Shown here one piece after another: positions 1 through 49,000 of a stretch of DNA of 64,000 bases. Below the pieces are notes generated by a model. The model worked only from the letters and a program-made list of their open reading frames with translations. It had not been told where the DNA came from and did not search any database. The stretch is taken from contig JAULBX010002556.1 in assembly GCA_032358255.1 (NCBI GenBank), forward strand, positions 80,546 through 144,545, in the 5' to 3' direction. The DNA comes from Heterotrichella gracilis. Its lineage: Eukaryota > Sar > Xanthophyceae > Tribonematales > Xanthonemataceae. A program made the translations under genes and the position numbers. Numbering within the stretch: the first letter of the stretch is position 1; every line of letters starts with the position of its first letter.

Positions 1-1313
1 TGGCTTGCACATCAGCAAACATCCTGAATTTGTATGTCCCATCCTGCAGTCCAATAATGTTTGTCAACCCTGGGTTAACCCTAAAGTCTGACCTTAAACC
101 TTAAAAGCTAAACACAAATAATGGATTCGCACAGGTCAGGGGGGAATGGCATAGAGCTTATACCGGCAGCACTTCGATTGTGGTGACATTTGCGGTATGC
201 AATCTATCAACAAGCAAATGCACATATATTACATCTTGTGCGCAGGCAATTTAGCAAAAATTCCCATGCTTAATTGACCTGCAGGCATGGAAGGCGGCTG
301 TCTTGCTGGTGTGGAAACATCTCAACCAGCCAACTATGTATCTAAAGCTTAACCTGGCCCATTTACGTACCTGCGGTACATGCAGGCATGCAGAAACTGA
401 CAGCTGAAAGTCACCCGCCAGCAGGTTGTCTTTATTTACTGATGGGTGGCAAAGGCTAGCAGTGGAGTGGCTGTGTTTGGTGGCTGGGCTTTAAAACCTG
501 AGAGGGGCAAGATGCAAAAGATTTCAGAAGACACAAAAGAAAAGCCTCCAAAAGGAACACAGTTATGCAGCCTGTCTGGGTTAGCCATGCACGCTTGTCA
601 AGGGAGACTTTAGTCAGCAAAGACAAAGACCAGCGTCAACAAAGACAAAGACATTGGTCCACTCAATAGTATGTCCTCCACCATGTGGGTCAACCTTCAA
701 ATCCTAAACCCTAAACCCTAAACCCCTACCTTGCAGGGGGTCAACCCTGTACTGGCCCTCGTGCTCATCCATGCTGTTGAAGTAGATGTAGGGCTCAGTG
801 GCGGTGAAGCTCGGCTTGCTTGGCAGCGGTGCAGGGTCGGTACCGGATGCCACATCATTGAGCGGCTGGTAGGGCCCATAGTCTTGCATGTTGTTCGGTA
901 GTGAGGACTGGCCCCACCAGTAGTACTTGACCTTGAAACCTGACGGGGTGTGGGTTTGGGGTTAGGGGTTGCAGGCAAGGGTGCGAAAGCTGTCTAGGGT
1001 TTAGGGTTTGGGGACTGGCCCATCAGTAGTACTTGACCTTGAAGCCTGCACACGTCGTTTGGGTTTCTACACCTAAAGGGTTTGGTGGACAAGGCCTAGA
1101 GTTCCTAGGGTTAGGTTTGACTGAACCCTAGTATGTGCTACATAGCACCTGCCTCGCTGCCACCGGTAGTTTAAGGTTTAGGGTTTTGGGTTGAGGTGTT
1201 AGGGTTTAAGCTTGCTGCCTACCTGCCTCAGCTGCCACCGTGGTGGGTCTGCAGCACAGCGCCAGAAGGGTTATCATCAGCCACATCAGCATGCGTTGCC
1301 TGCTACTGCCCAT
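1..1313 (-). CDS. Secretory-pathway protein, N-terminal part, cut by window edge
   Basis: Three minus-strand exons join in phase: 1313-1223, 939-730 and 69 to beyond base 1. The first encodes a hydrophobic signal peptide (LMWLMITLLALCC) ending near VAAEA. The second continues GFKVKYYWWGQSS and runs to YRVDPLQ; it is rich in aromatic residues and proline. The third reads LTNIIGLQDGTYKFRMFAD and leaves the window open. The start is either the ATG at 1313 or the in-frame ATG at 1292; both keep the signal peptide. The protein should enter the secretory pathway. I do not recognise the family. The intron between 1223 and 939 holds decayed copies of both of its exon edges. Which exons are real is inferred from splice sites and phase only. 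Confidence 0.5.
700..728. repeat. Interstitial telomere-like repeat at a splice donor
   Basis: Tandem CCCTAAA units (TTTAGGG on the other strand) run straight into the donor of the 939-730 exon, so that minus-strand intron begins GTAGGGG followed by TTTAGGG units. The same plant-type motif sits at many other introns in the window. Confidence 0.85.
1020..1165 (-). repeat. Shadow copies of both exon edges inside the first intron
   Basis: At about 1022-1045 there is a copy of the 5-prime edge of the 939-730 exon with its acceptor (TAGTACTTGACCTTGAAGCC on the plus strand). At about 1147-1165 there is a copy of the 3-prime edge of exon 1 (CACCTGCCTCGCTGCCACCG). Both lie within the intron they would bound and both are diverged. 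Confidence 0.65.
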
Positions 1314-2767: not shown

Positions 2768-5700
2768 TCACGCCAGGTACGCCACGCTGCACCCCCCTGC
2801 CGACATCTCCTCCAGTTCCCACTTGGCCACCTGCGGGTGCCGCGTCAGCAGCGCCTGCACCTCGCCACGCACACGCCCAGTGCCCACGCCATGCACCACA
2901 AACAGGCAACCGGTGCCGGGCCTCGCTGACCCGATGGCGCTCTCAACCTGCAGGGAGAGGCTCACGGTTTAGGGGTTTTGGGCTGAAATTGGGGTTCAGT
3001 GTTCTCTTTGCCAAGGGTTTCATGCGCACGTAGTGCACCACAGACAGGCACTTGTTTTGCCCTGAAACGACAGGGCTTGTTGACACCACAATCATCGACA
3101 TCACCACCCCATGCCAATGCAATGCAGGCCCATACAGAAGACCTTACCCTACAATAAGGCAATTATCCCCTTTCCACCCCTCTCCCCACCCACCTGGAAC
3201 ACAGCATCCTCTGCATTCATCCCCCGCACATCCACAGTGTTGAAGCTCGTCTGAATGCTGACCACCTGCCTGTCCTCCCTCCCCGCTCCCTCCTGCTCCA
3301 CCCCCCCTTCACCCCCCGGCCGCCACCGCCGCTCCTTCAGGCTCTGCTGCTGCTGCTCTTTGCGCACTGCCACCTGGCGAGCCTGGCATGCAAAACAATT
3401 GATTGAGATTACGAATAGATATTTGAATATTTACTCCACTGTTTGCCATTGTGCCAAAAACGTGCCGGGACTCGATTTATATTTGTTTATTTACTCCAAT
3501 GTGACCATTCTACCACAAGGTGACAAAAACGTGGCGGGACTCGATAGATATATGAAGCAATAGTAGAACCAAGCCAAGCAACCCTGAGCCATTGTGTTGG
3601 TTGAGGAACAGGAGCTAAAAACGAGAAGGGCATTGCAGCATGGTTTGCAACCCTACTGCCCACGATGCCCCGACCTTGCATGCCAAGGGCTGCTTGGCCC
3701 GGCCCGGTGTCATGTTTGAGTTTTAGGTTTTAGGGTCAGGTTCAGGGTTATGGTTTGGGTATATGCTACCTTGGTGTTAAGGGCTGCTTGTTTAGGATTT
3801 AGGATTTCAAACCCTAAATTGGGATTAGGATTGGGGTGAAGGCTACCTTGCATGCCAAAGACTGCTTGGCATGGCCAGCAATGTCATGCTTTAGGGTTTA
3901 GGATTAGGGTTGAGGTGAAGGCTACCTTGCTGCTTGGCCTGGCCTCGTGTCATGTTAAGGTTTTAGTTTAGGGTCAGGTTTAGAATTATGGTTTGGGATG
4001 TATGCTACCAAGCGTGCGAAGGACTGCTTGGCTTGGCCCGCAATGCCATGGTTTAGGGTTTGAAGTTTAGGGTAATGGATTGGGGTGTAGGTTACCTTGC
4101 GTGCCAATGACTGCCTTGCCTGGTCCGCAGTGAGTGGCGAAATCTCTGACAGCCGCACCTCGATGGCCAAGGTGCCAACCTTGACGCTCAGCTTGTTGCC
4201 GGACTTGCCTGCATGCAAAGTGCATCACTCAGCGTGGTTTATGGTCTGCCAGAGACTGTAGTACACTGGGACAAAGACCGAACCCAAATTTCCAAGCTGC
4301 CGGATGCACATGTCAGCAGTGTACACACTTGCCGGATTTGCCTGCTTCCAAAGGTCCGTGCCACTCACTGGTGGTTGTGTTGGGCAGACAGTTGAGCGTA
4401 TCTAGCCAATACCGAGTACAATCCCCACGGTATGCTGCAGTAAAATTGGTGGAAAGGGAACCCTGCACACCATGCTGTGCCATGACTGCACGTTGCTGTG
4501 CACATGCTTAAGTCATTGGCCAAACCCTAAACCCAAAACCCTACACCCTATATTCTATACCCTTACACCCAAGCTGGCTGCCTCACCTGCCCCCTTGACC
4601 ACCTGGCCGATCGCCCCCCCCATCTTCAGAACCTTAACGCTCTCCCCATCAGCCGGACGCCACTCCCCGTCGCCACTGGTACCTGCGCCACCCCCCTCCT
4701 CCCCCCCTTCACCATCGCTCCATTCCTCCCCTGCCGCCTCCCCGCCTCCCAGGCTGGCAGCAAATCGAAGACCCAGCAGTCCCGCTGAGGCAGCTTTTGC
4801 AGCCCTGATTTCCGCCTGTAGACCAAATCTGTGCTTAGAAACCATACGAGGACACGTGTTATTCAAATGAGGCAAATCCACCGAGCATGGGACTGCCTGT
4901 ACTACTATGGTATTGGTCAGCCACACGCCATCCTCCCTGCTTCTTAAAACCTGCTGCCGAGTAGCATGATCCTCAAAAATTACCATTACTCACTCCTCAG
5001 TCCAATGGGCCTGCCATCACCCACCTCAATCGCCTGGATGACCCCCTGCGCCTCCTCCACACTCACGCTCCCCCCTTGCACCCCAGCAACCGCCGCCTTG
5101 AGCTGGCCAGTAGCCCTCTTCACATCCTCCCGCACCCCCCGCTGCCCCTCCTTCATTAATTTCTTCTCCCGCTCCCGCAGCGCGTCGAACTCCTGCTGGG
5201 TTGAGGCGCGCTGCTGCTCCGCCACCTGGCGCCGCCGGGCGGCCTCCTCTGCCTGCGAGGGTTTTGTGCAGGGCTTGAGATGTAGTCTGTTCTTGGGACG
5301 GCAAGTATGGATCCCGTATTGCATGCCGCCGTGCCCCTGTGAAGGGTTCGCCAATGCAACACCTCTGATCTAATCACACTTTACATGTACAGGGGTTCTG
5401 TGTAGGGTTTACCAATATAAAGGGCCCTGGTTCAACCACACTACACCCACCTGCTTCTTCAGTGACCCACTTCCCACCGTTCACATTACCCTACCTTAGG
5501 GTTCAACGCTGCAAAACCCTGATGTAGGATTCCACCCACCTGCTGCCTGGCCGCCTCCACCTGCTCCTCCAGCGACCCAGCCAGCGCACTCCCCTGCATG
5601 GTCCCCATATCGCTCCCCCCTTGGCCCCTCCCCCCCCGCATCTCCACCACCACCCGCCGCGCCTCAGCCACCACTGCCCGATCAAACCCTAAACCCTCAG

Positions 5701-8700
5701 CCACCGCCAGCGCATTGGATGCGCCTGCCTGGCCCCAGAGCAGGCGGTAGGTGGGGCGCAGCGAGGCCAGGTCGAATTCCATGCTGGCATTGACAAAGCC
5801 CGGCTGGCTGGTTGCTAGATCCTGTGGCCAGAAACATTTAAGGATAATTCAGTTTGATTATGAAATAAGGAAAATGGGTATTACATGAGTAGGTGGGGCG
5901 CAGCGAGGCCAGGTCAAACTCCATGCTGGCGTTGACGAAGCCCGGCTGGCTGGTTGCTAGATCCTGTGGCCAGAAGCATTTAAGAATAATTCAGTTTGAT
6001 TATGAAATAAGGAAAATGGGTATTACATGGGTAGGTGGGGCACAGCGAGGCCAGGTCGGAGTACATGCTGGCGTTGACAAAGCCAGGCTGGCTGGTTGCC
6101 AGGTCCTGGAGTAGAAAGAATGAAGAATAAGTCATGTTGAATGAGGTGTGCAGGAAAGTCGTTCAGGAGTGGATGGTCAGGAATGCTTGCATGAGCATGT
6201 TTTCTCAGCATGGTGGGTTCTTGTCCAAGAATGGTTGGTCACGAATGAATACTAGCACTGCTGCCAAACTGCGGTTCAAGGCCGGTTGCTCAAAATCGGT
6301 TGTTGCAGAGTGGTGTGTCAAGATTCGCCCTGTTTGTTCCACCGTGGCTTCCTCACCTTGAGCTCAGCATGGTGCGTGGTTGCAAAGGTGAGTGCCGCTC
6401 GATCCGCCAGGGTTTCCAAAATGGCGGCCGCAAGGGCGGAACCCTCGACAGGGTCTGTGCCGCTGCCCACCTGGCAAGGGGAGGGAACACAAGAGAGGAT
6501 CAACCAGAGGAACTGGATACCGGACTCCTGTATGGTACAGGTTTTGTTGAGCCTCGTTGTTGTGATTATGTTGTTATGTTTGTGCATAACATGATGCTGC
6601 CTCCCCTGGTAAAGGGGAGAACACATGCAAGGATGGACACATGGTGAGGGACCGCGTGATGGTCAGTATTGTGGTGCTGCCCCTATAAAAGGGTTCTGGA
6701 GACACACACATCTGAACAAGGGGCAAAGTCAACCCTCGACAGGTAGAATTCACATCTCCATCAGCAGGGTCAGACCTCCCACCGCCCCCTCTACCACCAT
6801 CCCAACCCTCCATTTACCTCATCCAGTAGAACCAAATCTCCCTTCCCAACCGCCACCAGCGCATTGCTGATGCGCCGCACATGGCCACTGAAGGTTGACA
6901 GGTTCTGCTGCAGGCTCTGGCCGTCACCCACATCAGCAAGCACCTGGGGCAGCAGGGTTTAGGGTTTAGAATGTAGGGTTTCAGGTGTAGGGTTTGGGGT
7001 TTAGGTTCTGCTGCAGGCTCTGGCCGTCACCCACATCAGCAAGCACCTGGGGCAGCAGGGTTTAGGGTTTAGAATGNNNNNNNNNNNNNNNNNNNNNNNN
7101 NNNNNNNNNNNNNNNNNNNNNNNNNNNNNNNNNNNNNNNNNNNNNNNNNNNNNNNNNNNNNNNNNNNNNNNNNNNNAGGTTCTGCTGCAGGCTCTGGCCG
7201 TCACCCACATCAGCAAGCACCTGGGGCAGCAGGGTTTAGGGTTTAGAATGTAGAATTTCAGGTGTAGGGTTTGGGATTTAGGTTCTGCTGCAGGCTCTGG
7301 CCGTCACCCACATCAGCAAGCACCTGGGGCAGCAGGGTTTAGGGTTTAGAATGTAGAATTTCAGGTGTAGGGTTTGGGGTTTAGGTTCTGCTGCAGGCTC
7401 TGGCCGTCGCCCACGTCAGCAAGCACCTGGGCAGCAGGGCATAGGTTTTAGCTGCAATGACAGCAGGGTTTAGGGTTTTAGGGCCAAGAGTGCAGGGTTT
7501 AGCTACAAGCGGGCAGGCCCTGAAAAGCCCACCTCTGCATATGCAGCACCAGGTGCAAGGGTTTTGATTTAGGGTCAACATCATGATTGGCACATACCCG
7601 ACCCGAGTGTACACATGCACCTACCTTTTGGACCCACATCATGGTGGGCTGCTCCCCATTCCCTGTGTGATTTAGCCAAGGATTGGGGCAAAGGATTTGG
7701 GATTTGGATTTGAACTACCGCTTTTTTACTTTTCCCTTTTTTCCTTTGGTGCATTAATGCACATCGGTGCATGCAACTCGGTGGATGCTAGGCATGGGAT
7801 ACACATGCCCTTGTACATACCTTTTGGAACCACATCATGGATGGCTGCTCCCCGCTGCCCGTGTGGACAAACAGCCCCGCCTTGGCCATCAGCACGCACA
7901 GGCCAAGCAGCTTGAGCGAGGCGGTTTTCCCCCCCGTGTTGGGCCCCGTAACAGCCACCACCTTGATGCCAGGGGGCACCATCAAATCAACAGGACGGGG
8001 GAGGGGGTTGGGCTCTGCCGGTGGCGCCGGTTCCCTCCCCTGTGGCGCTGCTTTGGGTGCTTCCCCCTTGGGGGTTGCAAAGGGGGAGGCGGCATCCATG
8101 TAGTTGTTTTCGAATGCTGCCATGTCAGCCGCGGGGGGGGAGGGCAGGGGGGGGAGGCATGATTCTAGGAGAAGGGGGTGGCGCGCCTGCAAGGGGGTTG
8201 GGTGCTGCTTACAACAGGAAATGCTAGGAAGACTACCACGTAATGTTGCATGTTTCATGGACTTTGAGTCGCCTATTGACTGTGCATGAGCCGGACTAAA
8301 TGGAGGTATGCATGCACAGGGTTGTACCAAATCGTGTTGCCATACACAGTCCCACTACACAGCCACATGCAAAGAAATACAAGGTTTGGCAGGCTGGCCA
8401 TCACTGACGCCAGAACCAAGGGTGAAGTTTTCAGTCAAATTCAGCATGAGCCCAATAAGACTCATATTTTGCAAACAATGTGTGTCACCCCGCACCTGTG
8501 GCACGTGCACCAGCCCCTCAGGCCCCCCTGTGGTGAAGCGCGGTTTCACCCCCTGCAGCCATGCCGCGTGCCTCCCCCTTGCAGCCGCCAGGTCAAGGTC
8601 GCGGATGGATCGAAGCACACACAGGATGCGCGCATGCTCGGCCCCAACCTAGAGTGATACAGAAGGGTTTTGCTTGTTAGGGTGTAGTTGCTGAGAAGAG

Positions 8701-11404
8701 TTTTGGGTCAAGGGCGGGTTTTAAAGATCATGATTAAATACGACAGACCAAAAGATACCACGTGCAGACCAACCCCCCACCCCCCACCATGACAGCCTGG
8801 TACTCTGATACCCTCCGCTCCTCCACCATCCTCAACCCCCATAGGTAAACACATCCCACAAAGAAATACCATCAAACCCACCACCGCCACCACCACCACC
8901 GCCACCACCACCCACCATGGCCGCCAGCTCAGCCAGCACCCTCCCCTCCTCCTCAGCCACCGCACCCCCCAGCATGGCCTCAGCATTGTTAAGGGGCACC
9001 ACAGGGGCAGGCTCCATGTACTGCGTGGACCCACTCCCGCTGGCGGCCAATGTCACGCTGCCACGTGGCAGCTCGCCCTGGCGGGAGGAGCGCACTGCCA
9101 CACACAGGCGATCGCGCCGGATGACAACCTGGGGTGGGGGTTGAGGCGGGTGGAGACGTCTGGGTACACGCCAGAGGGGCAAAAAGGAGGAGACAAAGTC
9201 ACAGGCCACAGGCAGCAACTCGAGAAGTACTAAAGGGTTTCCATAGGTTTTCGCACGATTTTTGTAGGGGTGAATCATGAGGATTTGCCCACCTGCGGCC
9301 GCTCCGAAACCTGTTGCTGGTGCAGCGTCCTGGCCCAAAGAAAACACTGATTGTAGCGTTTTTGTAGGGTGCCCTAGGGTTTTTGTGCGGGTAAAGTCAA
9401 GAGGTTCTGCCCACCTGCGGCCGCTCCGACACCCCTTGCTGGTGCAGCGTCCTGGCCCACTCATCCACCGAGGCCCTGAGCTGCTGCATGTTGGCGGCGC
9501 GCTGGGCCCGTAGGGTTCGTAGGGTCTCACTGGCACCATCCACGATGTACCCATCTGGACCCTACACAAGGGTGTGTCAGATGGAAAGCCAAAGGGGATT
9601 TATCCGAAGTGGGAAATAATTAGCGGGAAGGAGCTTATCTGGCTGTACTGCTGGAATGTAAGTAAGCTTGCATTAATGGATTTCAAGTATCCTCATGTAG
9701 GCCATTCCTGACCGCATTTTGACACAAGTGAGCACAATTTTGAATGTTACGGTGCTGTCTGGCTGCTGAAGGTGCATGTGAGCTACGCTGGTCCTGCATG
9801 CAAGGATGCAATCGGATACCATTCCTGCCCCCGCCAAACATCGATACACCTCCGAATGGCAGCCTAAACCCCGAACCTGAACCCTAAAATGTAGCCTAAA
9901 CTTTAAACTCTATCCCCCATACCTTAATGCACCTCCTGATGGCAGCCCTCAGCTCAGGCAGGGCGCCCCCGATGCCACCTGCCAGCTGGCACAATGCAGG
10001 GAACTCCACCGCTGACGTGGCGCCATTTGACTGCCTGCCTGCTGACGTGGCGCCATCTGCTTGGCCGCCAGCGCCCACCGCCAACTCCAGGGCATGTGCA
10101 GCTTCCAAGGTGGATGCTACAGCGTGGAGGGCGAGGGGGTGCAACACCGAACCCGAGGCCGCGGCGTCCACTGCTGGGCGCAGGTCGTATGTCCCATCAA
10201 ACCTGCGCCGCCAAAGCATGTGGGTGGGGTGGGGTGGGGATTGGCATGGTTGCACACTGCTGGCGGGATGAAAATGCAAAATGCGCGCGCTCGACCCCTG
10301 TGAGGGCGGAGGTGATCTAGAATGTCCCTTTTATTTAAATTTAGCCGGCAGAAATCGACATCATACTTTTCCGAGCATGTCGTAAAACCCTAGCTAATTC
10401 CCGCTAAAACCCTCCCTGAGCCCCGCCACCTCGTGCCTCCTCCGTCTCCTATTGGCAACATCTCCCCAAAAGCCCTAGCTCATCCCAGCCAAAACCCTAG
10501 CTCATCCCAGCCAAAACCCTAGCTGATCCGCCAAAACCCACCTGAGCCCCGCCGACTGTGCCTCCTCCGTCTCCTGCAGCAGGCGCTGGCTGTGCTCCAG
10601 GGATGCGCCAAGTGGCAGGCGGGCAGCCAGTGCCACCTCAGCGGCCAAGGGGGTGCGGGTGAAACAGGCAACCTATGGAAGGGATATAGCATTTGAAATT
10701 GGTTAGCGTTCAAAAACAAAGCCGCTGGTTGTGGGGTGAAACATGCAAGGGGTTGAGCAAGCAGCGCATGGATTTTTGCGGTGCATGGTACGCGGCAGGG
10801 AGGTTGGCTTCGGAGGGCGAGCGTGTGCATCGCCAACCCTTAGGGGTTCTCCCAAAACCCTACCGGCCATTCCAGCGACTCCCGCTCAGCTGCAGCTGCC
10901 GCATGGCGGATGCGGCTAGCTGGTCAAGCAGCGCATGGATGTGGCACGAGGTGGGATGCCATGCATGGAGATAGCTTCAGAGTGCTCTTGCGCATCTAGT
11001 CTTTGGGTCCCTGACCCAACAGGTTTTTGCCCAAACCCTTAGCAATGCCCTACCTGTCGGCACACTGCGGGCCACTCCAGCATGGCCAGTGACTCCCGCT
11101 CAGCCGCAGCTGCCGCATCACTCCGGGGTTTGTCACCGCCACGCTCCCTGCCTCTTTGCTTTCCCCTCCCCTGCTCCCCTTGTAGCTCGATGCCGGGTGG
11201 CGCCTCCTGAGTGGCTGGGGTGCTACTTGCCTGGCTGCGGATGATGCCTGTTGGCCGCACACCTGGCGAGCGCCTGGGGTGGTGTGATGGTGGCGGTGCC
11301 CGGAGGTGGTGGCTGTGGGTGGGTGGTGGGAGCGGTGGGTGGGTGGTGGGTGCTGTGGGTGATAGCCAGTGTCTGGTAGGGCGCTGTGCTGGGACGTGCG
11401 CCAT
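2768..11404 (-). CDS. MUTS2: MutS2-type ATPase with C-terminal Smr domain
   Basis: Fifteen exons: 11404-11054, 10672-10542, 10202-9923, 9561-9415, 9128-8916, 8648-8496, 8186-7821, 6943-6818, 6470-6357, 5821-5540, 5252-5025, 4815-4587, 4208-4096, 3382-3194, 2947-2768. They sum to 1034 codons (1033 residues). Residues 1-117 are a Ser/Pro/His-rich, basic leader, probably a chloroplast transit peptide. The core follows, with ARHPLL, Walker A GPNTGGKT (506-513), the LVLLDE Walker B strand, GSGTDP and TTHHAELK. Next come a charged coiled segment (EEAARRRQ) and an acidic Gly-rich linker. A Smr nuclease domain ends the protein ([25 protein letters not shown]). MutS2 proteins act on recombination intermediates or collided ribosomes in bacteria; plant copies are organellar. 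It is longer than bacterial MutS2 (about 780 residues), mainly through the leader and linkers. The introns are full of copies of neighbouring exon edges. The ATG at 11404 is the first in frame after an upstream open stretch. Confidence 0.93.
3655..4130 (-). repeat. Decayed tandem copies of a MUTS2 exon end and donor
   Basis: The 3-prime end of exon 4208-4096 (encoding QARQSLARK) plus its GTAACC donor recurs downstream in the intron at about 3676, 3846, 3924 and 4010, at roughly 80-90 bp spacing. Each copy keeps the TGCTTGGC core, and most are followed by the motif TAGGGTT. The copies are diverged and none continues into the real exon. Confidence 0.75.
5747..6170 (-). repeat. 142-bp tandem triplication carrying a MUTS2 exon start
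   Basis: Three copies with exactly 142-bp spacing: GTAGGTGGGGCGCAGCG (and close variant) starts at 5747, 5889 and 6031. Each holds an acceptor and about 75 bp of exon encoding [14 protein letters not shown] and the following residues, plus about 65 bp of intron. Only the copy with acceptor at 5821 continues into the rest of the exon. The copies at 5963 and 6105 run into intron sequence and a stop. Confidence 0.95.
6901..7436 (-). repeat. 103-bp tandem array carrying a MUTS2 exon start, interrupted by the gap
   Basis: The segment starting GGTTCTGCTGCAGGCTCTGG occurs at 6901, 7004, 7178, 7281 and 7384, with exact 103-bp spacing outside the N run. Each unit has about 43 bp of exon ([14 protein letters not shown]) with its CAG acceptor, then TTTAGGG-like intron sequence. 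Only the 6901 copy continues into the exon (STFSGHVRR). The real copy number is unknown because the assembly gap lies inside the array. Confidence 0.95.
7077..7176. other. Assembly gap (100 N)
   Basis: Exactly 100 N inside the 103-bp array. The round number suggests a placeholder rather than a measured size; collapsed tandem copies are the likely cause. Confidence 0.98.
7621..7672 (-). repeat. Shadow copy of a MUTS2 exon end with donor
   Basis: Sequence here (ACCTTTTGGACCCACATCAT and on to the GTGTG) repeats the 3-prime edge of exon 8186-7821 with its GTA donor, which lies at 7818-7865. It sits downstream in the same intron and is about 90 percent alike by eye. Confidence 0.8.
8880..8915 (-). 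repeat. GGT-rich tract immediately after a MUTS2 donor
   Basis: Right after the GTGGGT donor of exon 9128-8916 the minus-strand intron continues as repeated GGTGG and GGCGG units. On the RNA this is a G-run tract that could fold as a G-quadruplex at the 5-prime splice site. A similar tract follows a donor in the tryptophanyl-tRNA synthetase gene (15748-15820). Confidence 0.7.
9288..9342 (-). repeat. Shadow copy of a MUTS2 exon end with donor
   Basis: The end of exon 9561-9415 (encoding [13 protein letters not shown]) and its GTGGGC donor are repeated here, 127 bp downstream in the same intron. Only a few bases differ. Confidence 0.85.
10384..10540 (-). repeat. Shadow copies of a MUTS2 exon end plus short CCCTAGCTCATC repeats
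   Basis: At about 10412-10465 the text CCTGAGCCCCGCCACCTCGT repeats the 3-prime edge of exon 10672-10542. Between 10468 and 10530 a short unit of the form CCCTAGCTCATCCCAGCCAA occurs in tandem. Confidence 0.7.
10855..10915 (-). repeat. Shadow copy of the end of MUTS2 exon 1
   Basis: The minus-strand sequence reads GCGGCAGCTGCAGCTGAGCG, then a Glu-Trp-Pro-like segment and a GTAGGG donor. It copies the last 50-60 bp of exon 11404-11054 inside intron 1, with small deletions. Confidence 0.7.
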
Positions 11405-12188: not shown

Positions 12189-15100
12189 ATGACGGAGGTG
12201 GTCCCAGATGCCCCTACAGTGGAAGAAAATGGCTCCACCGAGCAGGTTAGACAGCACACTGACTACAGAGACTTTCCAACTATCTATATGCATGGTGCTG
12301 AATGCCCCCTTGGTACTTGACCTGGCAATGTGGACGTCATGGGTTGTCTAGGGGCATGGGGGTGGGCATCCCAATGGTGGTATTCCTACCTGGTTGTGAA
12401 GGTCGAGTGTCTAGGGCTGAAACCCTGCGCTTGATGCAGGTTGTGACACCATGGGATGTGGCTGGAGGTTCCGATGGGGCCATCAACTATGACAAGCTGG
12501 TGGAACAGGTGAGTGCCACCCCTTGCATTTGGCTCTAGCATGCTTCGCACACAGCAAAAGGGTCCACTGCTGCACCACAAGTTAAACCCTAAATCGCTGA
12601 CAATCTGTGTTCCACCTGTGTGCAGTTTGGCTGCTCAGCCATCGACGATGCCCTGATCGCAAGGTATGCCGCCACCTGCCTGTGAGGCACCTGACCAGCC
12701 TGGCTGTGAGGCACCTGACCACACTGCCCTGCACCCCACCAGGCCTGTGCGCCTGCTATCCACCAGTACTGTAGCTGGCTAATACAGCCAGAATACCAGT
12801 CAATTCTGCACAAGCAGGGCCGAGGAACCTCATAATGCCTCTTTTTAAAATTTAACCAGTGATCCCCTGATCCCTGTGGGCTGTGCAGGATAGAGCGGCT
12901 GACCAAGCGGCCCGCCCACCCCTTCCTCAAGCGCGGGGTGTTCTTTGCACACAGGGACTTGAAGGAGTTACTGGACTGCTACGAGAAGGGGGTGCCTTTC
13001 TACCTATACACGGGACGGGTGAGTGGCCATGTGGGGGGGGAGCGAGTGGGTGCTGACCCACTCACTCACTCACTCACTCACTCACACATACAACCCAGGT
13101 AGTATGAGTATGCTGGTGAACTGCGGCAGCCATCTAACAAAGCGCACGACAGATAAGTACTGTATGATTGTTGCGCCCTGGGGGCTTATAATCCTCGATT
13201 GCATTGCCCCCATGGGAAACATAATCTGTGCACGCCAGGCACCTTTGCCACTTCGTGCATGCAATGTATGCCTTAAACATGGCATCCCAACCCTACCAGC
13301 CCTGCAGGGCCCTGCCTCTGAGGTGCGCCACCGGGGTCACAAATTTCATCCCCCCCCACCCCTGAATCTGATCATTTCCATCCTCTCCCCACTCAGGGCC
13401 CCTCCTCCGAGGCGCTCCACCTTGGCCACCTGGTGCCCTTCATGTTCACAAAGTGGCTCCAGGAGGCGTTCAACGTGCCGCTGGTCATCCAACTCACGGA
13501 CGATGAGAAGTACCTGTGGAGGTGGGGCGCGCACACACTTTAGGGGTTAGGGTTGGGGTTTAGGGTTCAGGTGTGCAACGTGCCGCTGGTCATCCAGCCC
13601 ACCGATGATGAGAAGTGGAGGCGAGCTGCGCACACGCCTTAGGGTAAAGGTGTCGGGTGTAGGGTGAAGGGTCATTGGCATGCATGCACTCCCCGCGCGC
13701 ATTGCCGCCCATGAATTGCATGTATGCACTGGCCTGGGGTGAGGGGTGGGCTGTATCACTGGCACGTACCCTGTGGAATGCGGGCCCTGCATTCCTGGCA
13801 TGTGGAGCGCTGGTCATCCAGCAGGATAACGAGAAGCGCCTGTAGAAAAGAGGCACAAGCATCCATTGGCATGTATGCCGCTGGCCACGGACGGCGACGA
13901 GTAACAGTTAGGCACGAGCACACATTGCAATTGCCCCTCCTATATAAATGAGGCACCCGCTTCCATTGGCACGTCTCATCCGAGACCGAAGCTCCATGTT
14001 TCCCCCTACTAGGGGTCTAGAGGTGGACGAGGCGAGGCGCCTGGCGCGGGAAAACTGCAAGGACATCATCGCCTGTGGGTTTGACGCCAGCAAGACGTTC
14101 ATCTTCTCGGACTTTGAGTATGTGGGCGGCGCCTTCTACCGCAACATTGTGCGGGTACAGAGGTGCGTGGGGTTGGGGTTGGGGATGGGGATGGGGATGG
14201 GGAAAGTGGGGAAAAATTGTGTGTCTGTGCAGTACTCATGTAAGGCATGGAGTGTGCTGGGATGGGTGGGCGGGGTGGGTGAATGGTGGGGATTATATGT
14301 GGGGGGGGCATATGGGTGGGGTGAAGATTGGGTTATCATTGCTGTGTCCATTGGTACGGGAGAAGCATGGAGCATACACATTTCATACCACAGCCCCATC
14401 CCTCCGTCCATATGCCCAAGCCCTCCCCAGAAGTAAGTAAGTATGTGCATTCCAAATTTGAAGGGAGACTAGCATGCCTATGTATTCCTTACCTCCTATG
14501 TATTCCTCACCAAGAGCCAACCATTCTCACCCTCCCCTCCCTCCGCGTCCCAGGTGTGTGACCATGAATGCCGCGCGGGGCATTTTCGGGTTTACCATGG
14601 AGGACAACATTGGCAAGATCGCATTCCCAGCGGTGCAGGCAGCGCCTTCGTTCCCGGACTCCTTCCCGCACATGTTTGGCACGCGCAAGGACGTGCGGTG
14701 CCTCATCCCCTGCGCAATCGACCAGGACCCATACTTCAGGATGACGCGGTGAGCGGTGGGATGGGGAATGTGGAGGGTGGAGAGGGGTGGAGGGGGGGAT
14801 TTATCATGGTGGGAGGGCTGTTGTGCTGCCATGTGCTGCTGTAGCACACCACCTTAAATCAGTCCCCTATACATCTGCTTGAACCGTTCCCCTTCACTGC
14901 GGTCCCCGCCAACCAGGGGGCTAAGAACCAACACATCAATGGTTTGCAAGGGGAAATGCATGTGCCAAAGTAATGCCGGGGCACCTGGCAGTAGGACAAA
15001 GGCTGCGCATGGGCCACTGTTAGTGACGCCCTCCTCATACCCACCACCAACCCCACCACCCGCAGGGACGTGGCGCAACGCATGGGTCACCACAAGGTGG

Positions 15101-16175
15101 CGCTCATCGAGTCCCGCTTCTTCCCCGCCCTGCAAGGGGAGAGCGGTAAGATGAGCGCCAGCGACACCTCCTCCGCCATCTTTGTCAGCGACACCCCCAA
15201 GGACATCAAGAACAAGGTGAACAAGTACGCATTCTCGGGTGGGGGGGTCACCGTGGAGGAGCACAGGGAGAAAGGTGAGGAGGCGAGGGGAGGAAACCCT
15301 ACATTTAGGGTAAGGGAGCCCTAGCATGCGGTTCGTATCCAAGTGTGAGCTTGCACAGTTGGCTTGTAGTAATGCTGATATGCCTGCATGTGGAGGGTGT
15401 CTCAAAGGGGCACCATTGCACGTGGTTATAGAGGGTCTCCTTGTATCGGGCGACAACCCTTGTGTAGGGTGTTCTTGGCTGGTTGAAAACCCTTATGCTG
15501 GGTAACCCCTGTCCTGCAGGCGCCAACTTGGCTGTGGATGTTTTTGGAAGTACCTCAACTTCTTCATGGAGGATGTAAACCCTTACCTGGGGCATTTCCC
15601 TGTCCTGCAGGCGCCAACTTGGCTGTGGATGTGTCTTGGAAGTACCTCAACTTCTTCATGGAGGATGACGTGAGGCTGGCGGAGATAGGCACAGAGTACG
15701 GGGCAGGCAGGATGCTCACAGGGGAGATCAAGGGGGAGCTCATCAAGGTGGGTGGTGGTGGTGTGATGGCGGTGGTGGTGGTAGTGGTGGTGGTGGCGGC
15801 GGCGGCGGCGGCGGCGGTGATATGGCTTTGGGGTTAGGGTATGATGGAGTTGAGGGGCGGGTAGGGTGCAGAGTGAGCAGAGGTGGAGCAGATGGAGGGA
15901 TATGGTGGTGGTGTGGTGGTGGTGGTGATGATGCTGCAGCACCTTTTGTACCCTCCATGGTTCACAAACACCCACCCACACCCACCGCCAACACAGTTTT
16001 TGCATGCATCCCCCACCCCCACCATCACCCCCACCCCCCCACATGGACCACCCCCCACCCCCCGCAGGTGCTTACAGACATGGTTGCCCGCCACCAGCAT
16101 GCGCGCGCAGCTGTCACCGATGACGTGGTTGACCTGTTCATGGCGGTCAGGCCAATGACGCGGCTGTGGGACTGA
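12189..16175 (+). CDS. WARS: Tryptophan--tRNA ligase, eukaryotic cytosolic type
   Basis: Ten exons: 12189-12245, 12440-12508, 12626-12663, 12889-13018, 13397-13521, 14013-14162, 14554-14748, 15066-15274, 15611-15747, 16068-16175. They sum to 406 codons (405 residues). It charges tRNA-Trp. The class I signature motifs are present: HLGH at residues 106-109 and KMSAS at 283-287. Segments [18 protein letters not shown] and NKYAFSGG are typical of the archaeal/eukaryotic type rather than the bacterial or organellar type. The N-terminus ([10 protein letters not shown]) is short, with no targeting peptide or WHEP domain seen, so cytosolic action is inferred. Partial copies of exon edges lie in two introns and after the stop. 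Confidence 0.96.
12680..12727. repeat. 24-bp tandem duplication in a synthetase intron
   Basis: CTGTGAGGCACCTGACCA occurs at 12680 and again at 12704 in the intron after exon 12626-12663. Confidence 0.85.
13058..13085. repeat. CTCA microsatellite
   Basis: About seven tandem CTCA (ACTC) units in the intron following exon 12889-13018. Confidence 0.95.
13546..13850 (+). repeat. Two shadow copies of a synthetase exon end
   Basis: The 3-prime edge of exon 13397-13521 ([17 protein letters not shown]) is repeated at about 13571-13640, reading [15 protein letters not shown]. In this copy the donor GT has become GC, and the copied intron start (GCGCACAC then TTAGGG) is present. A more decayed copy, reading [11 protein letters not shown] then a stop, is at about 13808-13845. 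Confidence 0.85.
15505..15580 (+). repeat. Shadow copy of a synthetase exon start, frameshifted
   Basis: The text TGTCCTGCAGGCGCCAACTT and about 50 following bases repeat the acceptor and start of exon 15611-15747, about 98 bp upstream. The shadow lacks one base in the run encoding DVSWK, so its frame is broken. Confidence 0.93.
15748..15820 (+). repeat. GGT/GGC-rich tract after a synthetase donor
   Basis: The intron begins GTGGGTGGTGGTGG and continues as GGT and then GGC repeats for about 70 bases. The RNA would carry a long G-rich tract at the 5-prime splice site. Confidence 0.85.
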
Positions 16176-30385: not shown

Positions 30386-31374
30386 ATGGCCTATCCTGAA
30401 GAACCACCGATACAGTACAGGTAACAACGAGTGATCCCTTATTGTCAAGTGGTTGTGGCAGTTTTACCACGCAATAACTTTGCAATTAGTGACACTTTCA
30501 CAAGGACCATGGGAGGGGTTTCTGCTGCAAGCATAACGTGATGGCACTCGCCTTTGGCGTTGGCGACAGGATCTAACGCTTTGTGGCCGTTCTTGCAGTG
30601 AGAAGTATTATGATGAGGTCTACGAGGTGTGTGGATTCCTTTGATTCCGCTGTTGGGTCCTTTTTTCCTGGGGTTGCTTCCCTCAAAGCCGCTGCTCATT
30701 GCTGACCCCCTGGTGTGCTTTGTGCAGTATCGCCACGTTGTTTTGCCACCTCATGTAGCCAAGAGGCTGCCAAAGGTACTGCAACTTGAGGCTGCATACC
30801 ACAGCAGCCGAAAACAAGTTCCTGGAATGTTGCTGTACAGAACACTGGTGCCCCTTGGTGGAGATGGGTTCTTGCCTTGCTCAAGCTCATAGTGGGGCAG
30901 TCCTTACCATTTTGAGGCTTCTTTCAGACTCTTTCAGACAGCTCCAACCTTCTGGGTGCAACCATACTCACCTGTGTCATTTCTGTACACAGGGAAGACT
31001 GCTCAGTGAGAATGAGTGGAGGTCACTTGGGGTGCAGCAGTCGCGCGGGTGGTGTCACTACTCCATTCACAGGCCTGGTGAGAACGGCCTTCAAGCCCTT
31101 CCTCTGGCAGCTCTTACCATATAATTTTGTGTGCACCACTGGTGGTGATCAAACTCTGGCCTTTTCAACACCGCTAGGTTTGCTGGTGCAGAACCCCACA
31201 TTGGTCTAACGCTCCACGGTGCAATGTTGCTCTAACGTTTAACGGTGTGCTTCTGATGTAGAACCACACATCCTATTGTACAGAAGGCCACGCACGGACC
31301 TGCCTGTGCAGCAGCTCCAAGGCCACGTCCAGCAGCAGCAAGCAGTAGAGCCTCAAGCTCATCATCTCAAGTGA
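30386..31374 (+). CDS. CKS1: Cyclin-dependent kinase regulatory subunit CKS1
   Basis: Five exons: 30386-30420, 30599-30626, 30728-30775, 30993-31077, 31262-31374. They sum to 102 residues. CKS proteins bind cyclin-dependent kinases and help them recognise phosphorylated substrates. The family core is complete: [49 protein letters not shown] and the final LLYRRP strand. The hinge HRPEPHI is present. The C-terminal tail after RRP is Gln/His-rich and longer than in yeast or animal proteins. The last intron ends in a TAG acceptor, and a second, diverged acceptor copy lies upstream of it. A complete extra copy of the terminal exon follows the stop. Confidence 0.94.
31182..31250 (+). repeat. Shadow copy of the CKS1 exon 5 acceptor
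   Basis: GCTGGTGCAGAACCCCACAT resembles CTGATGTAGAACCACACATC at the real exon 5. Splicing to this AG would keep phase and give [14 protein letters not shown] then a stop, losing the final strand. Confidence 0.75.
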
Positions 31375-31402
31375 CAGTATGCTTGTCCGGAGCGCATCAT
31401 TT

Positions 31403-31501
31403 CACATTATGCTTTTCCGGAGGCCGCGCACAGACCTGCCACCGCAGCCTCCCGTGCACCAGCTCCAAGGCCAAGTCCCAGTGCAGCAAGCAGACGTCTA
31501 G
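31403..31501 (+). repeat. Intact duplicate of the CKS1 terminal exon
   Basis: Thirty-three codons read [17 protein letters not shown] and on to QVPVQQADV and a TAG. They align with the real last exon ([16 protein letters not shown]). Over RRPRTDLP the two copies differ only at synonymous sites. The acceptor of the copy has been lost, and the upstream AGs (31377 and about 31392) give the wrong phase. Confidence 0.85.
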
Positions 31502-33070: not shown

Positions 33071-36000
33071 CTACGACGACAGCTGCATGACCTTCACGCT
33101 CCCCTGGCTGTTTGCGGCTAGTAGCGTGTGGCTCTTTGGCTTCCAGCACACCGCGCTGATGAACTGCGAGCTGTCGTTCAGTGGCGGACTGGTCAAGCCA
33201 GAGAAATGGAGGCTGGCCATGGGCTTGGACATGGACTTATAGTACACAAACACCTGGGGCAGGGGGGAGGCAGGGGGGGTCAGCAAGGATCTCAATTTCA
33301 ACCATTGTGATTTTGTGCGGCCACAACTGAATACAGGCAATAAGCCAATGTCGGCTTGGTACACCTTTCACTGTGTCTGTAATACACATGTCGACTGTGA
33401 GGTGCCTGGCCAATGCAGACTGCGCCATAATAGCCAAGTTCTGCCAGGTGCACGCCACCCCTCAGCTACAAACTACATCCCTGTACTCATAATCCTTTTC
33501 TCCACCCAGATTTATCCACCAGGTCAATCCCACGCTCAAACCACAAACAATTTAGAAGCCACACCGACTCCATGCACCCTAGCCCAGGTGCACAAGCAAA
33601 CCCCCCACCCACCTCATTCGACTCGCTCCCGCATGCCACCAGGTCGTTCTCCACGCTCAGCCCCACAAAGTTCTTCTCGTTGGTGTGGCCGCTGAAGGTG
33701 CGCGCTAGGCACATGCGCTTGTTGTCCCACAGCTTGAGGGTGGAGTCGGTGGAGGCGGACACAACCTCGCTGGTGCTGATGTAGCGCACATACGAAACAG
33801 CCTTGCGGTGGCCTGGGGGAGGGGGGAAATCCAGTCACTTGTGCATGTTTTGAAGGGATATTTTTGTCAACTTTGCATGTATTTTGGTGGAGGTTGACAC
33901 CACCTCGCTGGGGCTGATGTAGCGCACATCTGAGTCAGCCTTGCGGTGGCCTAAGCAGGGGAGAAGTCTTTTGGGACCCTGGTCAGATGGCCAAGACAAG
34001 ATCCCTTCCAAGAATTCCTGAGCAGTGGCCCTTGGAGGCAGAGCAATTTTGTTGCATTTAACACATTACCAAATTGTATTTTGGTAATGTCGACACTTTG
34101 TTGACGCTTCTGTATCGCACTATACACGCACTCCTAAATAAACTCTACTGCATTTTGCTACAACGAATCACAAAGTGGTAAATTTTTGGTGAACAACGAA
34201 GGACTTGGCACCAAGCTGCGCACCTTTGAACATGTGCAGCGGCGCGGTGGGGTTGCGCAGGTCATAGAGGTGCACATTGTGGTCTGCGCTGCCCACCACC
34301 ACCTCGTGGCTGACCATGGGGTTGTACTTGACGCAGCACACGTTGGCCTTCACGTCGATGCAGCTCACGGCGCCTGGCTGCTTGGTGGACCATACCTGGG
34401 GGAAGAGGGAGTGGGGTGTGGGTTAGGGTTATTTTGGTGGATGTTAGAGTTTAGGATTTAGGATTGAAGTTTAGAATTCAGGGTTTAGGTTTAGGCGGCC
34501 GGCTGCTTTCCTGGGGGGAAAGGTTGGTAGCGCATTTTGAGCTTATGATGATGACTGCACAAATTAATCAAAATGCACACTCCATATTTGGACGAATCTC
34601 TGTAGAATCGCATTGATCATTATTGATCACTTGCACCACCAGGTTGGCCCAACGCCCACACCCATTCATCGCTTCCATCCCATTCATCCACCACCCCACA
34701 TTGTCAATACCACCCCCATCACCCCACCATACATCCCACCTAATCCTCCCCCACCACCCAGCCGCACCTTGACAAAGCCATCATCCGACCCCGACACCAG
34801 CAGCATGGGGTCCACCTGGCAGAAGTCCACCGACCAAATCCGCTTCTCATGCGCCTCGTACTCCATCACCGTGGTGGAGTTGCTCACGTCCCAGATGGTC
34901 AGCATGCCCTCGTAGTCGGAGCTCACCAGGTAGTGCTTGATGTAGGCGTTCCAGGACACGCAGCTGAGCTTGCTGCGGGTCATGAGCTCCAGCACCGGGA
35001 GGTGGTTCTCGGCCCCGGGGTTGGCCACGATGGTGGGGAACTCGTAAAAGCTGGCGGGGACGGAAAACGTTTGTTAGCTTGTTTGTGTGTGCGTTTTGAA
35101 GGCTTCTTTTTGCTTTCCATGGTGAGGAGAGTGTATAGGCAGTGGACAGGCCCTCCAGGACAAGAGATTATCACCAGAGAGGGAAGCATTGACAGTGTAA
35201 AGGATGTTTGCAAACGCGGCAACGGCCAAGCCGCTTCCTGCGCGCTATACCTCAAATGCAAGGCCACAGGCACACGACCCAGGGCACACCCTTTCCATAA
35301 CACCCCGGGCCAGTGAGGACATACGCAGGTGCAAATATGATGCCAGAATGGGCACCACTGGCTCAGATTTTCTACTTCAGAGTTTAGGAGCCCATGCGCA
35401 TGACCATCATACCTGATGCGCTTTGAGACTCCTGCTGTTGCAAACAGTCGCCCGTCCCTGTCAAACTCTATTGAGGAGAGGATGGAGGTGGAGCCGCGCT
35501 GGTTGGTGCGGGGGATCTCAGCCACAATCTGCAGGGAGCGGGCAGGGGTGAGATATGGGTATGGGTAAGGGTATTGGTGAGGGTAGTGATAAGGGTATGG
35601 GTAAGGGGGGCAGGGTGAGGGTGAGGGAGCAGGCATTGGCGATGAATGGTGCATGGCCAGCCACCAATGCGCAGCATCCAAGCTGGTAGGCCTGTCTGGT
35701 GGGGTGTGGCTGTGCATGCATGTTCCGTGCACCTTGAGCTTGGTGCCTTTCACAGATCGGAAGCCATAAGCTTTAAACTCTAACCTCTACACCCTACACA
35801 GGGCAGCCCCGTGCACCTTGAGCTTGCTGCAATTTGTGAAGACCGACAGCATGCGCGAGAACTCGTGCAGCGCGGAGCGGTTCTGGGGCGCAGCCGCGGC
35901 TGCAGCAGCAGCAGCTGCGGGCGCCAAGGCCTGGTCCGCCACCGCTGCCGGTGCTGCTGCTGCGGGGTCGCCAGGTGGCGCAAGGGCGGGTGCTTGGGGG

Positions 36001-46000: not shown

Positions 46001-49000
46001 TCCACAAGATTCCGCTCTTCTGGGTCCATGGCCGCATGATGGAAACCTATACCAGCACATAGGCAGTTTCCCAGCTGCTTGTTGCTTGTCTGGGATGCTG
46101 CCTGTCTCAAACGTTCAAACTGCTGGGCTGAGCGCACATACGGGCTTGGGGACGTGCTTCCAGACAGTTTCTGGCATTGGGCAAGGAGATGGACTGCGGT
46201 TTCAGATGTCCCCTTGCGAGAGCTGCAAAGCATGTGAGATTGTCAGACGTCAGAGGTTTGTCATCAACATGGATTCATTGGGTGGATTGTCTACCAATGC
46301 GTGCACCAGGTCAGGGCAATTGCCACCATGCCGCCACCATACATTACATTAAATTATAGTTAATATCAAATGACACACTGTCAGGGAGGATGCTTGCACT
46401 TATTGCCTTTGTCCATGCAAGATGATGGTACTGTACCATCAGTGACCTACATGGAAAATGGATTACCCGACTTTTATCACAATCCACCATTATGATATGA
46501 TATTATTTCACCTGCAAAAGATCAGCGTTGGCTTCCCCTTGCTGTGCTCATTGACCACGCCGTATATGTGATCATTCAATCGTCTCTCAAACAAAAAATC
46601 TGCGCAGATGTGACAACGCCAATGTTATTTGAGAAGGGATGTATATGCTCGCAGAGGAACATGCATGAGACAACCTTGCTGCATTATTCTAGCCGCTAAG
46701 CAAGGTGATCGGAAGGGGGATTAATTGAATTCCACGGCCCCTGCAACTTTAGGAAATCCTGGTTTCAGTTAGGTACACTCCCGGAGTTGGGTTGAAAACA
46801 ATTTTGAAGCCCGCTGAGAACAACGGGGAATGCACATGGTTTACCATATGCAGGTTACTCAAGGGGAAGGGTACACTTTACGCGCCTGTCTTGGATTCGT
46901 TGTAGCCTTTCACTATGGTTGTTAATTTTACTGGCCGCATTTCCTCCCCAAAGCTTTTCAGGCCATCAGGTGGCACTTGCAGCCAATCAGCAAGGTCTTG
47001 GATGTTGGGAATTGTTGCAGAAACAGCAACAAATCTGACGTTGCCAATGGGTAGCTGCACAAGCACAACAATTATAGGCACAGTCACAACATTTCAAGCA
47101 TTGGATGCACCGAATTCAGATTGGCAGACCATTGGATTTGTAATGATACCAATTTTGAAGTACATGTGGCACTGAGGTGGAGAGTACTGAGGGGGTCAGC
47201 ACCATGCTTCTGATACCTGATCCCATCGCATCTGCGATGGTTGGTAGTAATTTAGAAGCGGCACAATGGCTGTCATATATTTGCACATGGACAGTGACTG
47301 CAGCCATTGTGACTGCAAGAATTTAAATCCATTCACAAATGGATTCACATGCAAGCCTGACAAACCCAATGATTGCCTGCAGGATGGCGCGTTTGTGATC
47401 CATACCTCCTTCATCTCAGGCAATTTGCTGATGAGTCTGATTCTAGATACCACGCCAGCTTCAAGGACAGCCCCTCGGTCTTCGTTCAACAGGTGCACCT
47501 CGTCGATCAGGACCAGCGCAATCTGCACACGTGCCGGATGCAAATTGTTTAAAATTCATAAAAAAAATGTGCCAGTGCCACTTAATTTACTTGCACATTG
47601 CGCGCACATGTGCATTTTTTTATCAGTAGCGTGTCCAACAGTTCAAACGCACCTCGCCGAAGAAGCCCAGCCCTCCTTGGCTCTTATTTTTCCTTGTCAT
47701 TGAGTCAAACTTCTCCGGAGTAGTGCATATGATGTCAGCTGCATTGACCCCTGACAGCTGCCCTTCATCAGTATCCCCTGTGACCTGTTGAAGTGGTGAT
47801 TATGGAGCTGGTCAGCTGAAGGTTGCTTGAGCATGTCTCAGTAAGCTCAGTAGTAGTAGTAAGCTCAGTAGTAGTGAAGTGGCACAGGGCTTTATGTCAT
47901 ATGCACATTCTCACATGGACAGTCCACTACTGTTTAACACAATTGTGACCTGGGGTATGGAAATGCTCACAGGTGACAGCCCAAGTGGGGCACACAGAGT
48001 GTGTGGCAGCCAGCTGACCAGGCATTCACTCAGGCTGCAGCCTGTTGGCTCAGAGCATGCAATACAAGACCGAGCAAAAGCAAAACCTTGCTACTGGCAA
48101 TAACAGAATTTCTCCCCACAGGACTCATATTCTGTGAGGGGGAAAGTGCACTCATGAGCAACTCTGTGGCGCGCAAGACCAAAAATCCTGTCAGTCATAG
48201 TAGTATTACCTCCATGCACACCCACAGGTGACAGCCCAAGTGGGGCACACAGAGTGTGTGGCAGCCAGCTGGCCAGGCATTCACTCAGGCTGCAGCCTGT
48301 TGGCTCAGAGCATGGAATACAAGACCGAGCAAAAGCAAAACCTTGCTACTAGCAATAACAGAATTTCTCCCCACAGGACTCATATTCTGTGAGGGGGAAA
48401 GTGCACTCATGAGCAACTCTGTGGCGCGCAAGACCAAAAATCCTGTCAGTCATAGTATGTAATCCTGTCAGTCATAGTAGTATTACCTCCATGCACACCA
48501 GCCCGATGGCACCAAACTTGGACTGCCAATCCTTCACCCGTTCTTGTATCAGAGCCTTGTTTGGCGCAATGTACAAAACCTTTTTAGTGCCGCTTCTGAG
48601 CTGCAGGATGTTGCTTGCATCGAGCTGCTTTGAAAGTAAGCCAAGGATACAAAGTTCCATGATTCCTGTCTTGCCAGAGCCAGTTGGGGCAGACACCACC
48701 ACGTTCTTTGAAGTCTTGTAGGCCAGCTCAAACGTCTCTGATTGCACTGCATTGAAGTACCTGCCAGAAAGTTGAGGTCTCTAATCCCAGGGCCTGATGA
48801 ATTAGTTGTTTTTGTGTATTCTGATTGTGCGCATGCTTTGAGACTGTGATGCGCTTAAACAGGTGCCAATGCTGAGCATGTAGATGCATGGATGGTGTAT
48901 GGATGATTGCAAAGCTGCCGCATGTCAGTCCACTTGAATACTCACATGGACAGGATTCAAAGCTGGGCTATATATATCTTGGCTATATATATCTTGGCTG

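What the first reader, a model, noticed from the sequence alone, without database searches (positions are those of the whole stretch)
1..49000. Shadow splice edges: introns across many genes carry copies of the adjacent exon edge
At least eight genes (the first secretory gene, MUTS2, WARS, HXK1, PPH1, CKS1, COP1, HFM1) have 25-90 bp of an exon edge plus its splice site duplicated inside the neighbouring intron. Some copies are near-perfect and tandem, others decayed or frameshifted, so the process seems continuous. I found more than 20 cases left of 49 kb and almost none right of it. Tandem duplication across splice junctions is a proposed route for intron gain, but such density in ordinary genes is unusual. 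It would produce decoy splice sites, trap reads and confuse gene prediction.
Basis: partly seen in the sequence, partly recalled or inferred. Interest (0 to 1): 0.88.

Follow-up and report, generated by a model that had tools for sequence, protein, structure and literature searches.

The report
Break-repair scars across algal splice junctions
In this stretch of a green-alga-like genome many introns carry extra copies of the neighbouring exon's edge; they look like neutral scars of DNA-break repair, sometimes with telomere-like filler, and they matter mainly as decoy splice sites and as a record of how introns grow.

Summary
In 62 modelled introns, 26 of 124 exon edges have a copy in the same intron at the lowest attainable p (0.005; about 0.6 expected); 25 of them are among the 96 edges left of 40 kb, 14 donor and 11 acceptor. 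Near direct repeats of score>=50 number 27 (arrays give several pairs), near inverted ones 0.

Intron interiors are duplicated about as often as exon edges (22 of 150 vs 18 of 96 segments), and the copies decay neutrally (30 synonymous, 38 nonsynonymous differences). Edge events exceed a random model modestly (14 of 18 vs 47-54%, P 0.008-0.034). AGGT-type intron-gain geometry is almost absent.

New here: in 7 of 12 tested events the homology stops too early for a simple tandem repeat, and degenerate TTTAGGG repeats (45 hits; 0-1 in shuffles) are often flanked by such copies (8 of 27 loci; matched control 2.3, P=0.001). I read the pattern as fill-in repair of staggered breaks, sometimes with telomeric filler. 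No genome of the organism was available.

The parts
902..1066 (-). First (unidentified) gene: acceptor edge of model exon 730-939; edge 902-957, copy 1009-1066, telomere-like spacer 958-1008
   Evidence: 83% identity, offset 107; spacer telomere score 29, p 0.03 vs random non-coding. Exon model has no Pfam match
2881..3050 (-). MutS2: exon stretch 2881-2908 (exon 2772-2947) and weak copy 3023-3050 in the intron
   Evidence: 82% over 28 nt, score 31; p 0.005
3673..4132 (-). MutS2 intron 3374-4119: array with telomere-like stretches; the last copy reaches 13 nt into the exon at 4120 (donor edge)
4196..4353 (-). MutS2 acceptor edge of exon 4120-4208 (4196-4220) and copy 4329-4353
   Evidence: 88% over 25 nt; p 0.005
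5447..5579 (-). MutS2: exon stretch 5557-5579 (exon from 5540) and weak copy 5447-5469 on the donor side
   Evidence: 87% over 23 nt, score 31; p 0.005
5747..6140 (-). MutS2 acceptor edge: three copies of a 142-nt unit (exon head + intron tail); copies 1 and 2 differ at four exon sites, all synonymous
   Evidence: the protein with a single copy aligns without a gap here to MutS2 of PDB 7qv3
6900..7451 (-). MutS2 acceptor edge of exon 6818-6943: array of a 103-nt unit (44 nt exon + 59 nt telomere-like), interrupted by 100 N (7077-7176)
7616..7865 (-). MutS2 donor edge of exon 7821-8186 (7812-7865) and copy 7616-7669, decoy GT kept
   Evidence: 83%, offset 196, spacer not homologous to either flank
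9259..9459 (-). Donor edge of exon 9415-9561 (9380-9459; upstream part of the MutS2 model, no Pfam match) and copy 9259-9337, decoy GT kept
   Evidence: 88%, offset 121, spacer not homologous to either flank
10384..10575 (-). Donor edge of exon 10542-10672 (10513-10575) and copy 10384-10450, decoy GT lost; AAACCCTAGCT-type minisatellite in the spacer
   Evidence: 87%; TRF
10872..11118 (-). Copy 10872-10904 of exon stretch 11086-11118 (exon 11064-11206); the gene finder also read 10864-10915 as an exon
   Evidence: 94% over 33 nt; p 0.005; spacer partly homologous to the flank, p 0.002
13305..13429 (+). WARS acceptor edge of exon 13397-13521 and copy 13305-13340, AG kept
   Evidence: 78% over 36 nt, score 32; p 0.005
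13464..13665 (+). WARS donor edge of exon 13397-13521 (13464-13566) and copy 13569-13665, decoy GT lost by reading of the alignment; telomere-like intron part
   Evidence: 76%, offset 105, compatible with plain tandem; exon verified
15481..15667 (+). WARS acceptor edge of exon 15611-15748 (15571-15667) and upstream copy 15481-15575, frameshifted, AG kept
   Evidence: 89%, offset 90, plain tandem; the extra residues are absent from WARS of PDB 1ulh
19545..19868 (+). HXK acceptor edge of exon 19788-19974 (19765-19868) and copy 19545-19646, frameshifted, AG kept
   Evidence: 76%, offset 220
20471..20628 (+). HXK acceptor edge of exon 20606-20753 and copy 20471-20507, AG kept
   Evidence: 82%, offset 120
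29137..29403 (-). PP2C57-like (PPH1) donor edge of exon 29355-29555 (29289-29403) and copy 29137-29255; decoy GT lost by reading of the alignment
   Evidence: 74%, offset 152; best PDB match protein phosphatase 2C 57
31258..31500 (+). CKS1 last exon in two copies ([15 protein letters not shown]... and [13 protein letters not shown]...)
   Evidence: 31303-31345 vs 31451-31493, 84%; three-frame translation; CKS Pfam match of the preceding exon
33516..33669 (-). COP1 donor side of exon 33613-33812 (33636-33669) and copy 33516-33547 (weak)
   Evidence: 82%, score 30; p 0.005
33748..33952 (-). COP1 acceptor edge of exon 33613-33812 (33748-33814) and copy 33886-33952, AG kept
   Evidence: 88%, offset 138, spacer not homologous to either flank; exon verified
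35725..35830 (-). COP1 donor edge of exon 35817-36062 (35809-35830) and copy 35725-35746, GT kept; telomere-like spacer 35747-35808
   Evidence: 95% over 22 nt; spacer telomere score 28, p 0.035
47968..48499 (-).
   Evidence: 98.7% and 100%; p 0.005; DEAD Pfam match of hand-joined exons (query partly from expectation)

Best explanation
These are scars of local DNA-break repair that build up neutrally in introns. Steps: (1) two nicks tens to about 150 nt apart, or a break with long single-stranded ends, open the DNA [inferred]. (2) Both ends are filled in and joined, which leaves the sequence between the nicks on both sides of the joint; extra filler DNA, sometimes degenerate telomere repeats added by telomerase, may be joined in between [the result, copy-filler-copy or plain tandem, is what the sequence shows; order of events and enzymes are inferred]. 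(3) Selection removes events that alter the spliced product, so survivors lie inside an intron or straddle one splice junction, where one copy stays in use and the other becomes a decoy in the intron [geometry shown; selection inferred]. (4) The decoy then decays by point changes and frameshifts at about the neutral rate [shown]. No targeting of exon edges is needed for most of the pattern.
For: Direct but not inverted, near but not far. Donor and acceptor edges hit alike, 14 of 48 and 11 of 48 left of 40 kb. Copies fade with distance from the edge: 2 of 67 exon segments at 60-120 nt, against 15 of 94 at the edge. Intron interior is duplicated about equally often (23 of 153; masked 22 of 150). 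Exon-part divergence 11.8% (72 of 611 sites) and aligned intron-part divergence 15.8% (59 of 374) are roughly what one against two unconstrained copies give; 30 synonymous and 38 nonsynonymous differences, and frame-breaking gaps inside the exon part in 5 of 14 copies, fit unselected decoys. Intron homology too short for a simulated tandem model in 7 of 12 testable events. Telomere-like sequence between the exon-edge copies in 6 of 22 (Fisher-combined p 2.7e-5), and 8 of 27 telomere-like loci flanked by direct copies against 2.3 in locally matched controls, P=0.001. Precedents, passages read: staggered breaks give small tandem duplications by CST-Pol alpha fill-in (PMC8355091); telomeric repeats inserted at breaks with duplication of the flank in 6 of 130 rodent and 4 of 25 primate loci (PMC2246262); filler DNA in maize end-joining (PMC2686159).
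Against: Edge events are more frequent than the random model gives (14 of 18 at score>=34, 19 of 24 at >=30, 11 of 14 at >=40, against 47-54%; P 0.001-0.055), so a preference for junctions is not excluded. Spacer tests are mixed: of 18 spacers, 7 show some similarity to a flank at p<0.05 in at least one of two tests (10872 and 31303 at 0.002), more than chance, as an eroded tandem repeat would; among the seven events that fail the tandem model only 902 does, at 0.048. 16 of 22 spacers are not significantly telomere-like, and two of the six that are (6900, 13464) are the intron part of a tandem unit, two (6900, 3673) are arrays. A rank test over all flank scores of telomere-like loci was not significant (Mann-Whitney p 0.07); only the >=30 threshold is. 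Several fresh events (5747, 6900, 15481, 47968) are plain tandem repeats, which slippage could also make. No empty allele or relative was available, so no event was polarised. MutS2 copies 1 and 2 differ only synonymously (4 of 4), which a neutral decoy does not predict.
Confidence: 0.58

Rival explanations
1. Splice junctions are true hotspots: transcription- or splicing-linked nicks (for example at R-loops) make breaks preferentially at exon-intron borders, and repair duplicates the border.
For: Edge events 14 of 18 (P 0.008-0.034 against the random model; 0.001-0.055 over three thresholds and two models); a per-segment simulation gave an expected edge share of 16-24% against 11 of 21 and 12 of 27 observed.
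Against: Intron-interior segments are duplicated as often as edges per segment tested (Fisher p 0.48). The expected share depends on the assumed unit lengths, which were taken largely from the edge events themselves. Few events.
Confidence: 0.2
2. Plain tandem duplication by replication slippage or unequal exchange, later eroded by intron deletions; telomere-like repeats are bystanders.
For: Fresh cases are tandem (units 142, 103, 90, 255 nt). 7 of 18 spacers keep some similarity to a flank at p<0.05. Introns cannot keep growing, so deletions must occur as well (inference).
Against: In 7 of 12 events intron homology stops after 2-34 nt although the exon part is 79-94% identical. Telomere-like loci are flanked by copies about 3.5 times as often as matched sites.
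Confidence: 0.25
3. Exonisation or intron gain in progress: some copies are spliced in as new small exons, as in the potato RdRp case, and are kept by selection.
For: MutS2 copies at 5885-5956 and 6027-6105 were chosen as in-frame exons by the gene finder, and copies 1 and 2 differ only synonymously, 4 of 4. Decoy acceptors keep AG in 11 of 11 by reading of the alignments.
Against: Across 12 copies the differences are 30 synonymous and 38 nonsynonymous, and 5 of 14 have frame-breaking gaps in the exon part. The extra peptide would interrupt a conserved stretch of MutS2.
Confidence: 0.1
4. Assembly artefact (unmerged contig ends or collapsed repeats).
For: A 100-N gap at 7077-7176 with identical 74-nt ends.
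Against: Most copies differ by 5-25% and many carry indels, which misassembly does not create; only one gap in 64 kb.
Confidence: 0.03

Closest known systems
Small tandem duplications at staggered double-strand breaks (CST-Pol alpha-primase fill-in and end joining; PMC8355091, passages)
   Same: Local direct duplication of the sequence between two nicks
   Different: The passages read concern induced breaks in mammalian cells with overhangs of 43 and 50 nt; here duplicated segments reach about 140 nt, are natural and often seem to carry filler
Interstitial telomeric sequences inserted at double-strand breaks (PMC2246262, passages)
   Same: Telomere repeat between duplicated flanks
   Different: There a minority of mammalian loci (6 of 130, 4 of 25) shown by comparison with empty alleles; here degenerate TTTAGGG in introns of an alga-like genome, not polarised
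[quoted passage not shown] reviewed in PMC3443670, passages)
   Same: Tandem duplication inside genes involving splice signals
   Different: Here existing junctions are copied and existing introns lengthen; AGGT geometry in 2 of 120 comparisons
Junction-spanning duplication in potato RdRp (PMC4974935, passages)
   Same: Copy of intron 3' side plus exon 5' side, as in the acceptor cases here
   Different: There the copy became a new intron plus exon; no transcript evidence here
Internal gene duplication (Gao and Lynch 2009; seen only as a citation in PMC3443670 and PMC4974935)
   Same: Short duplications within genes
   Different: Could not be compared in rate; the paper was not read

Membership tests
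Tandem genomic duplication intron gain (AGGT type) | Intron begins like the start of the downstream exon and ends like the end of the upstream exon | tested here: not met
   2 of 120 comparisons in 60 introns at p<=0.0034, about 0.4 expected; one, CGS 24496-24762, score 26, is a weak candidate
Junction-spanning tandem duplication (potato RdRp type) | Copy includes exon edge, splice site and adjacent intron | tested here: met
   Alignments crossing the junction; 26 of 124 edges. Four exon-matching events do not reach the edge (2881, 5447, 10872, 33516)
Junction-spanning tandem duplication (potato RdRp type) | Copy is spliced as a new exon and intron | not testable with these tools
   No transcripts available; an in-frame parse exists in MutS2
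Tandem duplication | Copies adjacent, offset equal to unit length | tested here: inconclusive
   Met in 5747, 6900, 13464, 15481 and 47968; a simulated neutral tandem model is rejected for 7 of 12 events, yet 7 of 18 spacers keep some flank similarity
Interstitial telomeric insertion at a break | Telomere repeat lies between duplicated flanks | tested here: met
   8 of 27 telomere-like loci at score>=30 (matched control 2.3, P=0.001; rank test p 0.07); examples 958-1008, 6944-7002, 13522-13568, 35747-35808
Interstitial telomeric insertion at a break | Absent from the ancestral empty allele | not testable with these tools
   No genome or relative available
Functional alternative exons | Coding constraint on the copy | tested here: not met
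   30 synonymous, 38 nonsynonymous over 12 copies; frame-breaking exon-part gaps in 5 of 14; exception MutS2 copies 1/2, 4 of 4 synonymous

The most novel reading that the evidence does not exclude
In this alga, breaks at or near splice junctions are routinely healed by fill-in together with telomerase, leaving exon-edge / TTTAGGG-filler / exon-edge scars; this one pathway supplies much of the intron length, seeds decoy splice sites in about half of the introns of a region, and occasionally a decoy (as in MutS2) is taken up as a new exon.
Probability: 0.18. Interest if true: 0.78.

Novelty: new variant of a known kind. Interest (0 to 1): 0.52.

Why it matters
If the density holds genome-wide, this organism would be a natural record of break repair in genes: introns would keep datable, base-resolved scars, so the share of fill-in duplication, filler and telomeric healing, and any preference for splice junctions, could be counted directly. 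It would also show how introns can lengthen without transposons, and it warns gene predictors that near-perfect decoy splice sites are common here. A link between telomere-like repeats and duplicated exon edges in introns did not appear in the listings of the searches, which cover only the open papers held and show only the best-ranked ones.

Tried and rejected
Tried without gain: whole-genome search (no genome held); relatives through COP1 in genome contigs and WARS in viral contigs (no relative); two scripts that timed out with no output, redone in smaller form. The first gene-finder run was over-permissive (356 exons, many tiny) and was dropped. Spacers as copies of other places in the window: 8 spacers searched; the listed hits for two of them (902 and 35725) fall at telomere-like stretches elsewhere in the window, 10872 has a 16-nt exact match nearby (10758-10773), the other five gave weak hits.

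Considered and rejected: introner-like elements (no direct repeat of score>=50 farther than 600 bp); an RNA splicing motif as the reason for TTTAGGG in introns (both orientations occur relative to the genes, my reading); assembly artefact in general (copies diverged).

Limits: gene models are home-made; one model exon start in MutS2 (5814) is probably 5820 by reading. One search left out the one intron with N (94 of 96 edges). Searches masked telomere-like stretches and microsatellites; one search shuffled single bases; on the right it found 7 of 23 interior segments and 1 of 28 edges, the 7 presumably from the 47968 duplication. One search left out offsets under 40, so the 41-nt tandem repeat at 28698-28779 is not counted; one of its four interior events (7014-7047|7291-7324) belongs to the 6900 array (14 of 17 without it, P 0.003-0.015). 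could test 12 of 14 events (two have exon parts under 20 nt). The gap counts printed cover intron parts too; one search separates them. One search's automatic register scored AG in 9 of 11 decoy acceptors (nine edges, two of them with two copies) and GT in 6 of 7 decoy donors; reading the alignments gives 11 of 11 and 4 of 7, which I use. In one search arrays inflate the 18 of 41 count; the 27 loci were collapsed by hand from the 45 hits, leaving out one inside an exon (5685). In one search the spacers for 6900 and 13464 are intron parts of tandem units. The 36.5-kb boundary and the score-30 flank threshold were chosen while looking at the data. Papers were read as passages only.
Full report
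What the window is. It is eukaryotic and looks like a green alga: intron-rich genes, plant-type telomere motifs in introns, matches to plant COP1 and protein phosphatase 2C 57, hexokinase, WARS, MutS2, a gene I read as cystathionine gamma-synthase, Tim17/22, syntaxin and a CH-domain sperm-protein family gene. That it is a chlorophyte is my inference. No genome is held, and two collection scans found no relative. I built a small gene finder and checked WARS, HXK, COP1, PP2C57-like and MutS2 against solved structures.

Noticed in passing
7077-7176: 100-N gap inside a 103-nt tandem array; 7003-7076 and 7177-7250 are identical, so the two contigs may overlap rather than be separate copies.
   Followed up: partly
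5747-6105: MutS2 exon-head copies 1 and 2 differ at four exon sites, all synonymous, and the gene finder reads the copies as in-frame small exons: possible exonisation.
   Followed up: partly
1-8000: Telomere-like TTTAGGG/CCCTAAA stretches are densest here (23 of 45 hits, several from one array), in both orientations; possibly subtelomeric sequence.
   Followed up: partly
31258-31500: CKS1 last exon present twice, with different C-terminal tails.
   Followed up: partly
decoy splice sites, left half of the window: By reading of the alignments decoy acceptors keep AG in 11 of 11 while decoy donors keep GT in only 4 of 7 (Fisher p 0.04).
   Followed up: partly
24496-24762: Cystathionine gamma-synthase intron: its end resembles the end of the upstream exon (score 26, p 0.003), the one weak candidate for AGGT-type intron gain.
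   Followed up: no
28698-28779 and 56802-56880: Short tandem repeats of 41 and 28 nt, in a PP2C intron and near the CH-domain gene; minisatellite-scale duplication also occurs right of 49 kb.
   Followed up: no
42000-52000: GC falls to about 47-49% here against about 51-60% elsewhere in the window, coinciding with few duplications.
   Followed up: no
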